From Snodgrassella alvi (GTDB lineage: Bacteria > Pseudomonadota > Gammaproteobacteria > Burkholderiales > Neisseriaceae), in NCBI RefSeq assembly GCF_040741455.2, contig NZ_CP160328.2, positions 868,001-932,000 on the forward strand: a stretch of DNA of 64,000 bases. Direction: 5' to 3'. The notes under the pieces are model-generated. The model was not told the DNA's origin. It did not search any database and worked only from the letters and a program-made list of their open reading frames with translations. Both the position numbers and the translations under genes were made by a program. Numbering within the stretch: position 1 is the stretch's first letter; each line of letters starts with the position of its first letter. Below are positions 18,879-23,401 of this stretch, in pieces.

Positions 18879-18901
18879 TCTAGCTGATGAATATGTAATC
18901 T

Positions 18902-18937
18902 CGGGGTTAGCTTTAATCAGGCTAACTCCGTTTGTTT
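18902..18937 (+). terminator. Terminator of bamE-dapB
   Basis: Stem CGGGGTTAGC / GCTAACTCCG (one G-U pair) with a nine-base loop, then TTTGTTT, 24 bases after the dapB stop. Confidence 0.8.
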
Positions 18938-19014
18938 ATCTTCTGCCATTCTATTAAGTCAAATAAAACGCTTTATTTCACCCTAGCCTCACAAACAGAT
19001 TTTTTATTAATAAT

Positions 19015-19044
19015 CAAAAAAAAACCATTGTCGGCGACAATGGT
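19015..19044 (-). terminator. Terminator of the copper-storage-like gene
   Basis: On the minus strand, stem ACCATTGTC / GACAATGGT with a three-base loop is followed by a run of nine T residues. Confidence 0.92.
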
Positions 19045-19064
19045 AAAATGGATTTTTTATATAT

Positions 19065-19394
19065 TCAGGCAGCCATAGCCATACATTTGTCGGCACAATT
19101 TGTGCAGGCTTCAGCGCAGCGCTGGCAATGATCCATTTTAAAACGGGCACATTCCTGCGCACAGGCGCGGCAAACCTCAGCACATAACTGACATACCTGC
19201 ACTACGAATGGACTGTTCATGCACATAAAATTTACCGCCAGAGAACACATAGCCGCACACTGCATATCTAAATGAATACATTTCGCCATCATTTTGACAT
19301 CATCTTCTTGCAAGCAAGCGGTGGAACAATACTGACACAGAGCAATACAACGGTTACATGCTTCTACGCATTCTTTAAACTGACGGGCATCCAT
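19065..19394 (-). CDS. Four-helix-bundle copper-storage-like protein (cytosolic Csp family)
   Basis: 109 residues with 20 cysteines, arranged mostly as CxxC and CxxxC pairs along helices (for example Cys9, 13, 16, 20, 23, 27 and 90, 93, 97, 100, 104). This is the signature of Csp proteins, whose four-helix bundle is lined inside with Cys thiols that bind many Cu(I) ions. No Tat or Sec signal is present, so it resembles the cytosolic Csp3 type. Methionines (MM, MAMAA) could help copper entry. It is a single-gene unit with its own terminator and no copper ATPase or chaperone next to it. Related DUF326 proteins have fewer cysteines. Confidence 0.88.
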   Translation of the reverse strand: MDARQFKECVEACNRCIALCQYCSTACLQEDDVKMMAKCIHLDMQCAAMCSLAVNFMCMNSPFVVQVCQLCAEVCRACAQECARFKMDHCQRCAEACTNCADKCMAMAA

Positions 19395-20083
19395 AATTAT
19401 TATCCTTTTTTAACAATAGATTGATTTAACAGGGAAAATCAAAATCAGTCTATAAAATCATCGCGCATATTGCAATGCGGTTCGATGTAAATATAATCAT
19501 GAATTAGCTAGAATAAATTAAGTTTTAACAGCAATTAATCAATCTCTGCCAAATTTTTTCCCCGCTTCCGGTTAGCTTAAATAAATAAAAAATAAAATTA
19601 TTATCTATCTATTAGTCAAGCAAACAATGATGATGAGCAATTATTAACAGTTACCATTACACTTGCCATTCATGGCAGACCTGAGCACCATCAGCATTGA
19701 ATCCAAAACGTTCTTACCAGAAAAGACATTATCATGCTGAAAGTTTGGCGCATAGAATGCATATTTTTTACATTTCTCATCTGGTTTCGCTATTACCCTC
19801 CATTTTTAGGTTTAGAGTACATCATATATCTGATTTAAATGAATATGTAATTTAAATACGTTAATTTATAACAGAACCATTTGCCGTTGATATTTACTTT
19901 TGCCTAAAAAATCTGTTTGTAAACAAACATTCATATAATTGAAAATGACTGCCAATCTTTAACTATTCAACCAGAAAATGGTATCTATCATTATCTTTCA
20001 AAATATTCATATTAATCAGTATTATATTGAAAAAAAGATGTATAACTCCAATATTAATATTGTGAAATTTATAGGAGTTTATT
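19395..20083. other. AT-rich gap upstream of the copper-storage-like gene
   Basis: 689 bases. Two tiny overlapping frames occur on the plus strand, at about 19673-19741 (starting MADLSTISIE) and 19734-19838 (34 residues, hydrophobic, starting MLKVWRIECIFFTFLIWFRY). Neither has a good ribosome site. No other signal recognised. Confidence 0.45.
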
Positions 20084-20356
20084 ATGGCAAGTGGCTGGGC
20101 TTCAGATGATGCAGTCAATCAGCAAATTGAAAGTACCATCGCAGACGCTATCAATCATGTTCGGCAGCAAATGGATCAGGCGGCAGAAAGTGCAGAATTT
20201 TGTGAAGAATGCGGTGAAGCTATTCCGCTAGCTCGCCGTCAGGTTTTAAAAGGTGTGCGTTTTTGTGTGGAATGTCAGGCAGAACGAGATAAGGAAATGC
20301 AAAAAACGTTCAGTTTGTATAACCGACGTGGCAGTAAAGACAGTCAGTTGCGCTGA
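20084..20356 (+). CDS. DksA/TraR-type C4 zinc-finger protein
   Basis: 90 residues with a helical N-terminus and a C4 zinc finger: Cys40, Cys43, Cys61 and Cys64, in CEECGEAIPLARR and FCVECQ. This matches the short TraR/YbiI branch of the DksA family, which binds the RNA polymerase secondary channel. It lacks the long coiled-coil of true DksA, so it may act as a TraR-like transcription modulator. The start has an AGGAG ribosome site. Short TraR-like proteins are common on phages and plasmids, and the next gene is a phage-type repressor. Confidence 0.88.
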   Translation: MASGWASDDAVNQQIESTIADAINHVRQQMDQAAESAEFCEECGEAIPLARRQVLKGVRFCVECQAERDKEMQKTFSLYNRRGSKDSQLR

Positions 20357-20924
20357 GTGGCAATGAAGTAGCGTACTGCAAAATAGAACGTCTTTCGATT
20401 TAGATAATTATTCTGAAATTAAGCATTTGTTTTAGTAAGCTGAAGCGGTAATAAAAATTCGGAGTAGCAGTTAATTTTGTCTCATTTTGCAAATACATTT
20501 GAGCGTATTTTCAGTTGTTCAGTAGGTATTAAAATGGAATTGTGCTTAGTATTTTGCCTCACACAATCAGCAATGTGAACGTGCTCAAGGCACTTGTGCT
20601 GACTGTGTGGCTAATTGTCTATGCTTCGAATTATTTGTTTACACGAACAGGCCGAATCAGGATTTATTTTTCATTTTACCTGTCTGAAAAAAACCATAAA
20701 CAAAGATGACCGATATTATTTGCCGTCTCTACTACGCTATATTTTTTATCAGTAGCTTTCTGTTTCTTTGGCAGTACAGTATACAGTAACGACAGCTAGC
20801 TAATTTCTTGGTGAAAAGAAATACAAAACAAACTTAGCACATTTGCAACGGTTTTTATCGTATCACCATATTTACTATTGGTACCTGATTGCAGCCAGAT
20901 ATCAGATTTAGATTACGGTATGGT
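20357..20924. other. Gap between the zinc-finger gene and the repressor gene
   Basis: 568 bases. It includes a 42-codon GTG-started frame at 20581-20709 beginning VLKALVLTVWLIVYASNYLF, a possible small membrane peptide without a ribosome site. No terminator hairpin is obvious for either flanking gene. Confidence 0.45.
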
Positions 20925-21680
20925 TTAGATTTTGCGGCCAAACCATTCTACTTTACCGATAATTTCAAAATCCTGTTCACTATCTGTTAAATCAATATTG
21001 AATGGCTCATAGGCACTGTTTGCTGACGTAACTAATAACTGGTTGTTTGGCTTGAGCTGGGTGCGTTTCACCAAAATATTTTTGCCTATGCGCAAAACAT
21101 ACAAGCCATCACCACCGGCTTTTTTACTATGATTAATTAATACATGATCGCCATCATTAAGCACACCAGCCATGCTGTCATCTTTAACAACCATCGTGCT
21201 GAGTTTCTGTGGATCGATATTCAGGGTGTTTTCCAACCAGTTACGGTTAAAAGCAATAGTACATGCTATTTTGCTCTCTTTGCTTTCAACATCATCTGCA
21301 TTCTGAATGGAGCAAACCGGTATAAAAGCAAAATCACGAGCATGTACTTCATTAACTGGTAGAATATACTCACAGCCAGCTTCACTGATGGTGGCATTCA
21401 TAGCCAGCGGATTGGACAGTTTTGCGCAAAAATCAGCTTGTTCGCTATAACCATCCAGTTCGATTTTGCTGCCTTTGCCGGTTGCCAGCCATTCAAGCTT
21501 TACTTGCGCAACGCGCGCTATTTTAATCAGATTGGTTGTACTAGGCTCGGCACCTTCTTTCACCCATTTTGAGGCAGTTGGATAGGCCACCTCTACTCGT
21601 CTGGATAACTCTGAAACGCTCCCAAGAATATCCACTACTTCTTGCATTCTTGAGGCAAAGCCGACGTTAAAATTTTCCAT
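20925..21680 (-). CDS. Phage-type transcriptional repressor, XRE helix-turn-helix plus S24 (LexA/CI-like) domain
   Basis: 251 residues. Residues about 20-65 form a helix-turn-helix (SELSRRVEVAYPTASKWVKEG). Residues about 115-251 form an S24 peptidase domain with Ser169 (KDDSMAGVL) and Lys205 (ILVKRTQ) as the predicted dyad. The Ala-Gly at 101-102 is farther from Ser169 than in lambda CI or LexA, so self-cleavage is uncertain. It reads away from a long empty region that contains a divergent promoter and dyad repeats, the usual repressor/early-promoter layout, but no phage genes follow. It may be a prophage remnant or a domesticated regulator. Confidence 0.9.
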   Translation of the reverse strand: MENFNVGFASRMQEVVDILGSVSELSRRVEVAYPTASKWVKEGAEPSTTNLIKIARVAQVKLEWLATGKGSKIELDGYSEQADFCAKLSNPLAMNATISEAGCEYILPVNEVHARDFAFIPVCSIQNADDVESKESKIACTIAFNRNWLENTLNIDPQKLSTMVVKDDSMAGVLNDGDHVLINHSKKAGGDGLYVLRIGKNILVKRTQLKPNNQLLVTSANSAYEPFNIDLTDSEQDFEIIGKVEWFGRKI

Positions 21681-21730
21681 ATTGGAATTACCTTCAAATA
21701 AAAATCGTGCAAAGTTAAATTTAAAATATA

Positions 21731-21751
21731 TTGCTAAACAATCGTTTACAA
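21731..21751. promoter_or_regulatory. Possible operator of the S24 repressor
   Basis: Imperfect dyad TTGCTAAAC-AATC-GTTTACAA lies 51 bases upstream of the repressor start. TTGCTAAA recurs at 21803-21810 and its inverse, TTTAGC, at 21830-21835, bracketing a promoter. Repeated half-sites between a repressor gene and a divergent promoter suggest autoregulation; binding is not shown. Confidence 0.4.
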
Positions 21752-21802
21752 TTCAAAGCTTAATCAAATACAACAATTATCTATACCAATTTAAATTAAA
21801 CC

Positions 21803-21830
21803 TTGCTAAAAATAACTTTTGCTATATAAT
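21803..21830 (+). promoter_or_regulatory. Divergent promoter facing away from the repressor
   Basis: TTGCTA (21803-21808) is followed after 16 bases by TATAAT (21825-21830). A strong ribosome site, AGGAGG, occurs at 21849-21854, yet no ATG follows at the right distance. This looks like the surviving control region of a lost early (cro-like) gene. Confidence 0.55.
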
Positions 21831-21853
21831 TTAGCATGCCAATATATTAGGAG

Positions 21854-21973
21854 GTGCATCTCAACACATTAAATATATTTCAAGCTAACATTAAAAATAA
21901 GCTAAAGTTGCTATTTAAGCTTACAGATATAGCATTTAATACTATAAATAGCACGAGTGCAGCACAATATTAG
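21854..21973 (+). CDS. Possible truncated frame behind the divergent promoter, 39 residues
   Basis: A GTG overlapping the AGGAGG site opens a 39-codon frame (VHLNTLNIFQ to NSTSAAQY). The spacing is wrong for initiation from that ribosome site. It may be the decayed start of a gene once controlled by the repressor. No family recognised. Confidence 0.15.
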   Translation: MHLNTLNIFQANIKNKLKLLFKLTDIAFNTINSTSAAQY

Positions 21974-22915
21974 TGTCTTTATCGGGTATGGGCTGATGAT
22001 ACCATGTTGTCATGTGTAAGGAAATGCTCTGACATAAGTAAATTTGCGCCTAACCACAGGTTAAAATGGTAAGGTATTTATTGCCTCAGTTGTATTTTCA
22101 CTATCGCAGGGCAATATTCCTGAATTCAATTGCCTCTTGACAAGTCTCTGTATGTGAATCTATGTTAAATTTAATACTAATTTTCTAATCCAGTAATATA
22201 ACTGCTTTTAATACTATTTTGGTAATAAACATTGATTTTTTCCATTTTAATTAAAATTTATAAATCTAAAACTGCTCTTTTGTATATTTTTCTGCCAATC
22301 ATTTCTGACAAAGTTTACGGCTATTTAAATATAACTTCAATTCTATAATAAAAAACTTGAAACTATTTCTTAATTTTAATTTGTAAATAAAACGCTTTTT
22401 ATCATTAATAATATTATCAATTTTTTATGCTAAATTAATTTATATAGCATATTTCAATTTTCATCATTAATTTTAATATTATAAATTTAAACTTCATTAT
22501 TTCATGTAAAAATATAAAATATTAAATTTCATTTAAATCATCAAAAGAATTATGATAGACATATTTTTGCGCTTGAATTCTGAATTGAATCTGCTATCAG
22601 GCGATTAAACTCATAATTGCACTTAAAATACGGACTTAATCCACCTTAGTGTGAAATGATAAAGGTAATTAATTTAAAGTTAAAAACGACTAAAGCTTTA
22701 GAAAATGAAAATTGTTAACTTTTCTTACTGGCGAATTCTGTACCTATTTTTTTAGATTACGAGCTCTATACAGAGTTGTTTTTGCTTTAGCCAACTAGTG
22801 AACGCATGGTTTTCTCTGTGACAAAATGAAACAGATTAAGTCGTATTTTTGAGACTACAACACTGGCGCTGGCATATTTAGCCTAAAAAATCCCGAGAAT
22901 AAATAGAAACACGCT

Positions 22916-23401
22916 TTAAGAGTGGCGCTGCCAGAGTCCAGATTGCCCGCCTTCTTTGTGTTGTAGGCAAACCTGACTAATTTCCATACTGCGGTCGACA
23001 GCCTTAAGCATGTCGTAAATGGTTAACAAACCAACGCTGGCAGCGGTTAAAGCTTCCATTTCCACGCCCGTTTGACCAGTATTTTCGGTTTGCACACAGA
23101 TGGTGATGCTGCGCTCGATGTTGTTAAGGGAGAAATCCACGTTAACTTTAGTCAACGCTATGGGATGGCATAGCGGAATCAAACTACTGGTCTGCTTGGC
23201 ACCCTGTATAGCGGCAATTCGGGCAATACCCAATACATCGCCTTTTTTGCTGTCGCCAGCCAATATTTTATTATATGCAGTTTCATTCACCGTGATTTTA
23301 CCGCTGGCAATGGCCATGCGTTTGCTATGAGGTTTGCTACCAACATCAACCATATGTGCTTCACCACGATTATTGAAATGAGTTAATTCGTCTGAAATCA
23401 T
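22916..23401 (-). CDS. moaC: Cyclic pyranopterin monophosphate synthase MoaC
   Basis: Second step of molybdenum-cofactor synthesis, making cPMP from the MoaA product. 161 residues. Visible are LTHFNNRGEAHMVDVGSK, IAAIQGAKQTSSLIPLCHP, TGVEMEALTAASVGLLTIYDMLKA and KEGGQSGLW. It is divergent from mog, the late adenylylation step of the same pathway. Confidence 0.98.
   Translation of the reverse strand: MISDELTHFNNRGEAHMVDVGSKPHSKRMAIASGKITVNETAYNKILAGDSKKGDVLGIARIAAIQGAKQTSSLIPLCHPIALTKVNVDFSLNNIERSITICVQTENTGQTGVEMEALTAASVGLLTIYDMLKAVDRSMEISQVCLQHKEGGQSGLWQRHS

What the first reader, a model, noticed from the sequence alone, without database searches (positions are those of the whole stretch)
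20925..21973. Orphan phage-type repressor with a divergent promoter that faces no clear gene
The S24/XRE repressor is followed upstream by a dyad (21731-21751), a TTGCTA-16-TATAAT promoter bracketed by GCTAAA and TTTAGC, and a perfect AGGAGG site. No start codon at a proper distance and no gene follow. Either the early gene was lost and the repressor is a relic or domesticated regulator, or it now controls an untranslated RNA. A TraR-like gene next door fits a mobile-element origin.
Basis: partly seen in the sequence, partly recalled or inferred. Interest (0 to 1): 0.55.

Follow-up and report, generated by a model that had tools for sequence, protein, structure and literature searches.

The report
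Orphan Mu-like repressor kept by host
A bee-gut bacterium keeps the repressor gene and control switch of a long-gone Mu-like virus, and the repressor has lost the usual spot where such proteins cut themselves, which suggests that the cell has taken it over for its own use.

Summary
The window is a Snodgrassella chromosome; 20925-21680 (-) encodes an HTH + S24 repressor; TTGCTA-16-TATAAT at 21803-21830 (+) faces no gene. The repressor is not a decaying relic: it is syntenic in 11 of 14 genus genomes, under purifying selection, and groups with repressors of Mu-like prophages whose divergent slot carries ner and the transposase. The own genome gave no match to Mu transposase or Ner. In the deep comparison the 28-bp promoter, spacer included, is the most conserved stretch of the 1.2-kb intergenic region. 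An inverted 17-bp operator-like pair (21709-21725 / 21790-21806) occurs nowhere else in the genome at up to 1 mismatch. At the usual autocleavage place 0 of 13 orphan repressors have Ala-Gly, against 16 of 16 ner-linked relatives; Ser and Lys remain, and 10 of 13 orphans have an Ala-Gly or Cys-Gly elsewhere in the hinge, so cleavage is not excluded. I infer a domesticated, self-controlling, probably uninducible Mu-type repressor. Superinfection immunity is the likeliest benefit but unproven; no phage with matching operators was found. An untranslated RNA is neither shown nor excluded. The TraR-like neighbour is incidental. Closest precedent: FddR of Francisella.

The parts
20925..21680 (-). 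Orphan Mu-like c repressor gene, 251 aa (HTH + S24)
   Evidence: ORF; Pfam and PHROG matches; syntenic orthologues; purifying selection
21465..21680 (-). HTH domain (residues 1-72), 55 of 72 identical to the repressor of the Mu-like prophage in G013 (L053)
   Evidence: alignment; lowest dN of the three segments in 13 of 14 pairs
21291..21296 (-). Codons of Asp129-Asp130, aligned with the Ala-Gly autocleavage dipeptide of ner-linked relatives
   Evidence: alignments: Ala-Gly at this place in 16 of 16 ner-linked, 0 of 13 orphans
21174..21176 (-). Catalytic-type Ser169, invariant in alignment A1
21066..21068 (-). Catalytic-type Lys205, invariant in alignment A1
21709..21725 (-). Operator-like site O3 (repressor-proximal), inverted copy of O2
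   Evidence: inverted repeat, 15 of 17; shuffle p 0.013; with O2 the only genome sites at up to 1 mismatch
21731..21751 (.).
21790..21806 (+). Operator-like site O2, overlapping the -35 of the early promoter
21807..21819 (+). Possible third operator-like copy in the promoter spacer, 13 nt, 85% complementary to 21711-21723
   Evidence: pair I2
21803..21830 (+). Retained Mu-type early promoter Pe (TTGCTA-16-TATAAT) with conserved spacer and no gene downstream
21849..21854 (+). AGGAGG without a usable start codon; AGGAG invariant in 8 of 8 close relatives
21996..22047 (-). Conserved block with an extended -10-like TGGTATCAT on the - strand (21996-22004), exactly 165 bp from the Pe -10 in 8 of 8 close relatives; possible distal repressor promoter

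Best explanation
This is the immunity switch of an ancient Mu-like transposable phage that the Snodgrassella lineage has kept after losing the rest of the phage. [quoted passage not shown] it is retained and constrained; the early promoter with its spacer is retained; ner, transposase and what follows them are gone; the Ala-Gly dipeptide at the usual cleavage place is gone. Inferred: the repressor binds the inverted 17-bp sites at the early promoter and near its own start, silences the early promoter and controls its own level, and no longer answers to RecA by self-cleavage. Because no second pair of such sites is seen in the genome, its useful target is probably either the early promoter itself or the operators of an incoming Mu-like phage (superinfection immunity). 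I put most weight on a domesticated, probably uninducible, autogenous repressor, with immunity as the likeliest benefit.
For: Synteny moaC - rep - (traR) - DUF326 - dapB in the loci that reach both flanks. Prophage counterparts with ner and transposase by PHROG match: L053, L054, L059 and L096. ML tree: the 9 syntenic orphans used form a 100/99 clade that groups with 6 ner-linked repressors at 94/89. dN/dS well below 1, for example L034-L037 0.079/0.524; HTH 0.018/0.447; hinge 0.244/0.615. Pe pattern once per genome in 11 of 14, always at this locus. Pe the most conserved window in the deep comparison. Ala-Gly at the usual place in 16 of 16 ner-linked and 0 of 13 orphans. No phrog_310 or phrog_769 match at E <= 0.001 in the own genome. 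Operator-like pair unique to the locus in the own genome.
Against: Ser169 and Lys205 are invariant, which is odd for a repressor that never cleaves itself. 10 of 13 orphans have an Ala-Gly (6) or Cys-Gly (4) somewhere else between HTH and Ser: in the window 67 residues before Ser, in one (L109) 35 residues before it, against 41 in the 7 ner-linked rows measured; cleavage at another place is therefore not excluded. The L053 operator repeat is not clearly matched in the orphan loci: p 0.023 for the best match in the window, 0.18-0.70 in the 7 others, and two control motifs gave p-values as low in single loci. The O3/O2 pair is above shuffles (p 0.00-0.053) in 6 of 8 close loci and not in L038, L010 or the 3 distant loci. 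80 viral-contig loci with one operator match each hold no ner- or repressor-like frame. The tree's long branches (L002, L014) are unplaced. No expression or binding data.
Confidence: 0.55

Rival explanations
1. The repressor now controls an untranslated RNA made from Pe (about 21837 onward), which acts on host genes or as antisense to a long leader of the repressor mRNA.
For: Pe is conserved. Window against L034, L037, L038 and L010: 0.71-0.81 identity in the sampled 28-nt windows 21852-21935, 0.82 and 0.71 at 21992 and 22020, 0.39-0.51 from 22048 to about 22215. AGGAG is invariant in 8 of 8. A - strand extended -10 lies exactly 165 bp away in 8 of 8, so Pe and a leftward promoter could face each other.
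Against: In the distant clade (L039, L011, L013) Pe is conserved but not the sequence behind it. Between the two conserved stretches identity drops to 0.51-0.54, and another stretch, 22328-22439, also reaches 0.57-0.71. Structure z-scores are weak and similar on both strands. No Rfam match, no terminator-like site listed there, no shared reading frame.
Confidence: 0.25
2. The protein is a DNA-damage regulator like FddR or a LexA substitute, and cleavage takes place at another dipeptide.
For: Ser and Lys kept; S24 domain matches LexA structures. Ala-Gly or Cys-Gly elsewhere in the hinge in 10 of 13 orphans. Co-opted phage repressors of this kind are known in Francisella (abstract and passages of PMC13148647).
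Against: Ala-Gly at the usual place is absent in all 13 orphans; the substitutes lie at different places and are missing in 3 of 13. A separate LexA-like S24 protein with Ala-Gly exists in the same genome (L003/L055). No second operator pair elsewhere at up to 1 mismatch.
Confidence: 0.14
3. It is a decaying phage relic without function.
For: No gene downstream of Pe; fast-evolving hinge.
Against: Intact in 11 of 14 genus genomes with low dN/dS and a conserved promoter.
Confidence: 0.04

Closest known systems
c repressors of Mu-like transposable phages (for example MP22 and DMS3)
   Same: HTH + S24 protein divergent from an early promoter; ner and transposase follow in the prophage relatives L053, L054, L059, L096; phage matches include the MP22 and DMS3 c repressors at 28-32% identity, the best being two Klebsiella phages at 34-38%
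   Different: Here ner, transposase and the rest are gone, the gene is vertically retained, and Ala-Gly at the usual place is lost
FddR of Francisella (PMC13148647; abstract, found passages and one results section read)
   Same: Genus-wide co-opted S24 phage repressor outside prophages, autoregulated, divergent arrangement, few targets
   Different: FddR keeps Ser-Lys and Ala-Gly, is induced by ciprofloxacin, derives from lambdoid repressors, binds GTG-N11-CAC and controls a divergent gene; ours lost the usual Ala-Gly and faces no gene
NG1427, LexA-like protein of Neisseria gonorrhoeae (passages of PMC3040777)
   Same: Neisseriaceae S24 regulator; the family-wide group with Ala-Gly, including L003 in this genome, is probably its orthologue group (recalled, not tested)
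   Different: That group lies on a separate side of the tree and keeps Ala-Gly; NG1427 is cleaved with RecA according to that paper
Phage 186 CI (PDB 2fjr)
   Same: Best Foldseek match of the model; recalled to be a repressor that is not cleaved
   Different: 14% identity, low TM-scores over the whole chain (0.32/0.41), another phage type

Membership tests
Mu-like phage c repressor | HTH + S24 protein related by sequence and tree to repressors adjacent to ner and Mu transposase | tested here: met
Mu-like phage c repressor | Divergent early promoter upstream of the repressor | tested here: met
   Pe at 21803-21830, conserved; activity not tested
Mu-like phage c repressor | ner and transposase behind the early promoter | tested here: not met
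   56 mechanical ORFs of four Mu-like prophages and L095 against 18900-22950: best non-repressor E 0.013; no phrog_310 or phrog_769 match in the own genome
Autocleaving S24 repressors (LexA/CI) | Ser-Lys dyad | tested here: met
   Ser169 and Lys205 invariant
Autocleaving S24 repressors (LexA/CI) | Ala-Gly cleavage dipeptide at the usual place | tested here: not met
   0 of 13 orphans against 16 of 16 ner-linked; Ala-Gly or Cys-Gly elsewhere in 10 of 13
Autocleaving S24 repressors (LexA/CI) | RecA-stimulated self-cleavage | not testable with these tools
   needs purified protein
FddR-type co-opted repressor | Genus-wide retention outside a prophage | tested here: met
   11 of 14 genomes; no Mu transposase match in the own genome
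FddR-type co-opted repressor | Divergently transcribed target gene | tested here: not met
Superinfection immunity repressor | Recognises operators of a phage that infects the host | tested here: inconclusive
   L053 operator similarity weak; no matching phage found in the searches
Regulated small RNA locus | Conserved structured transcript with an end | tested here: inconclusive
   weak structure, no Rfam match, no terminator-like site

The most novel reading that the evidence does not exclude
Snodgrassella keeps disarmed Mu repressors as single-gene phage immunity: the repressor lost its usual self-cleavage site so that DNA damage cannot switch it off, its only resolvable chromosomal operators are its own, and its real targets arrive with invading Mu-like phages. 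A second orphan in the same genome (L052, 43% identical, another recognition helix, also without Ala-Gly at the usual place) would be a second immunity specificity.
Probability: 0.28. Interest if true: 0.68.

Novelty: new variant of a known kind. Interest (0 to 1): 0.5.

Why it matters
It is a natural case of a phage immunity switch reduced to its minimum and kept by the host: repressor, operator-like sites and early promoter survive, while the lytic genes and the usual self-cleavage dipeptide do not. If immunity is the benefit, it shows that hosts can keep a repressor as a stand-alone defence, and makes this testable in a genetically tractable bee symbiont. If Pe is still used, it would be a phage promoter turned into an RNA or feedback element.

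Tried and rejected
TraR-like gene as part of the element: rejected, because the orthologues in G001 and G005 lie on other contigs. Remains of other Mu genes around the repressor: none convincing (best non-repressor E 0.013). A small protein from Pe: no frame shared by the close relatives. Structured RNA: weak signals on both strands; Rfam empty. The L053 operator repeat as the orphan's operator: 12 of 14 in the window (p 0.023), p 0.18-0.70 for the best match in the 7 other loci (two-site p 0.030 in L034); motifs of two other Mu-like classes, used as controls, gave p of 0.010-0.05 in single loci, so this is not evidence. Search for the same HTH class in viral contigs with two short peptide patterns: 7 stretches, none a relative. 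Repeated use of the 21996-22047 block: one other place with 3 mismatches in the own genome; the earlier DNA search gave one borderline hit at E 0.008, not pursued. Literature searches: (listings; three papers opened in part). No paper on an orphan Mu repressor in Snodgrassella was seen in the listings (2 and 8 papers listed, not opened except PMC11389375); one search listed one paper, not opened.

Full report
What the window is. The window is part of a single 2,291,622-bp contig (G000:C1:868001-932000). Close relatives are named Snodgrassella records: L040 is S. alvi wkB298, with a repressor 98% identical; L034 is S. gandavensis and L037 S. communis. The neighbourhood is dapB, a DUF326 gene, a TraR/DksA-like zinc-finger gene, the repressor, moaC and a MoCF-domain gene.

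The observation. The repressor and the TTGCTA-16-TATAAT promoter are there. Scored only as a consensus match, the promoter is not above chance. Its conservation is the evidence. In an alignment of the intergenic region of 11 orthologous loci (8 close, 3 distant; a twelfth, L041, was dropped because its repressor lies at another site), the 28-nt windows starting at 21802 and 21803 tie as the best of 1204, with 0.85 identity against a median of 0.31. In the one close-distant pair tested (window-L039) synonymous sites are saturated. A pattern built from this alignment is found once in each of 11 of 14 genus genomes, always beside this gene, with none for the reversed control. Because the pattern came from these loci, the informative part is that nothing else matches. 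The three genomes without it are G007 (60% complete), G011 and G012.

Origin. In G013 a homologue (L053, 50% identical overall; 55 of 72 residues in the HTH) is followed on the other strand by a ner-like gene (phrog_769) and a Mu transposase (phrog_310). G003 and G012 carry Mu-like prophages with repressors of other HTH types (L059, L054), G015 another (L096), and G005 has separate transposase and ner matches. In the tree (44 of 56 rows used; 12 dropped: L024-L031, L067, L100, L101, L112) the 9 syntenic orphans form a clade (100/99) that groups with six ner-linked repressors (94/89, just under the tool's mark for firm support). Two further orphans, G011 at another site and L002/L052 in the own genome, have long branches and are not resolved. 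So the orphan descends from a Mu-like phage repressor. In G011 the dapB-moaC interval holds cas7, csd1 and cas5 genes and no repressor.

Retention. The gene is intact in the 11 genomes with the syntenic copy. Pairs with unsaturated synonymous sites give dN/dS of about 0.04 (window-L040), 0.15 (L034-L037) and 0.04 (L034-L036); the hinge evolves fastest, the HTH and S24 parts slowly.

The cleavage site. I aligned 56 repressor rows taken from the loci held. Sixteen have a ner-like gene within 700 bp; all 16 carry Ala-Gly at the usual place, and one search found the ner gene in all 16 again without using L096's own frame as a query. Thirteen orphans (11 syntenic, the G011 copy, and L002/L052) carry none there. 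One row (L112) is a shortened duplicate and was not counted. Of the other 26 rows, 22 have Ala-Gly and 4 (L024, L025, L026, L031, distant proteins) do not. Against my reading: between HTH and Ser, 10 of 13 orphans have an Ala-Gly (6) or Cys-Gly (4) at another place; in the window it is 67 residues before Ser, in four close relatives a Cys-Gly at 65, in L109 an Ala-Gly at 35; in 7 ner-linked rows measured the usual dipeptide is at 41. These substitutes are not at one shared place, and three orphans have none. Ser169 and Lys205 are invariant in A1. A Lys motif used missed 6 of the 16 ner-linked rows through sequence variation. The AlphaFold model has mean pLDDT 75 and pTM 0.53; its best Foldseek matches are phage 186 repressor and LexA, with good TM-scores only for the C-terminal domain. 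A profile search of solved structures gave UmuD and LexA.

Operators. Between repressor and promoter there is an inverted 17-nt pair, 21709-21725 and 21790-21806, 15 of 17 matching, and a weaker third copy in the promoter spacer. Against 150 shuffles each, the best inverted 17-mer has p of 0.00-0.053 in 6 of 8 close loci, 0.22 in L038, 0.89 in L010, and is not significant in the 3 distant loci or in three Mu-like prophage loci. The motif TTTAAATTWAACYTTGC, up to 1 mismatch, occurs twice in the own genome, both here. In G106, G002, G008 and G010 too the only two sites are at this locus, 81 bp apart as in the window. G006 has one, at the locus; G009 one at the locus and one elsewhere; G004 two, G001 one and G007 one elsewhere; G003, G005, G011 and G012 none. 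The reversed control is 0 in 14. The motif was taken from the window, so its presence here is circular; its absence elsewhere is not. It suggests, at this stringency, that the repressor has no large regulon.

Behind the promoter. No start codon at a proper distance and no shared frame follow. Window against four close relatives, identity is 0.71-0.81 in the sampled 28-nt windows 21852-21935, 0.51-0.54 in 21936-21991, 0.82 and 0.71 at 21992 and 22020, then mostly 0.3-0.5, with another stretch of 0.57-0.71 at 22328-22439. The block at 21996 holds, on the - strand, TGGTATCAT (TGGTATTAT in L010), exactly 165 bp from the Pe -10 in 8 of 8, although the window, L037 and L010 lineages carry indels in between that cancel. 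Such a site is expected by chance in 5-15% of shuffles per close locus, one distant locus (L011) has one at 127 bp, and two have none. It could be a distal repressor promoter facing Pe, as I recall for phage Mu. This is a lead, not a result.

TraR-like gene. It has a match in 12 of 14 genus genomes (55-56% identity in G011 and G012), but in G001 and G005 it lies on another contig than the repressor. It does not support a mobile origin of the repressor.

Comparison with what is known. FddR of Francisella is a co-opted S24 phage repressor with a divergent target and an intact Ala-Gly. The present case differs in phage type, in the lost usual Ala-Gly and in the missing target gene. I file it as a new variant of a known kind.

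Noticed in passing
L052:5776-6717 (own genome C1:1189006-1189713): A second orphan S24 repressor (phrog_4, Pfam S24 and HTH_3), 43% identical, with a recognition helix resembling that of phage loci L092/L093 by eye and also without Ala-Gly at the usual place; seen in G000 and G106 only.
   Followed up: partly
window 21996-22047: Conserved block exactly 165 bp from the Pe -10 in 8 of 8 close relatives despite cancelling indels; near-palindrome ATGATACCATGTTGTCAT.
   Followed up: partly
window 20084-20356: TraR/DksA-like zinc-finger gene with a match in 12 of 14 genus genomes but at different places.
   Followed up: partly
L119:3480-6806: In G011 the dapB-moaC interval holds cas7, csd1 and cas5 genes (Pfam), so this interval seems to accept cargo.
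   Followed up: partly
L035 and L040, between the DUF326 gene and dapB: About 2 kb of extra sequence compared with other relatives.
   Followed up: no
L003/L055 (own genome C1:2149481-2149909): LexA-like S24 protein with Ala-Gly, family-wide, probably the NG1427 group (recalled).
   Followed up: partly
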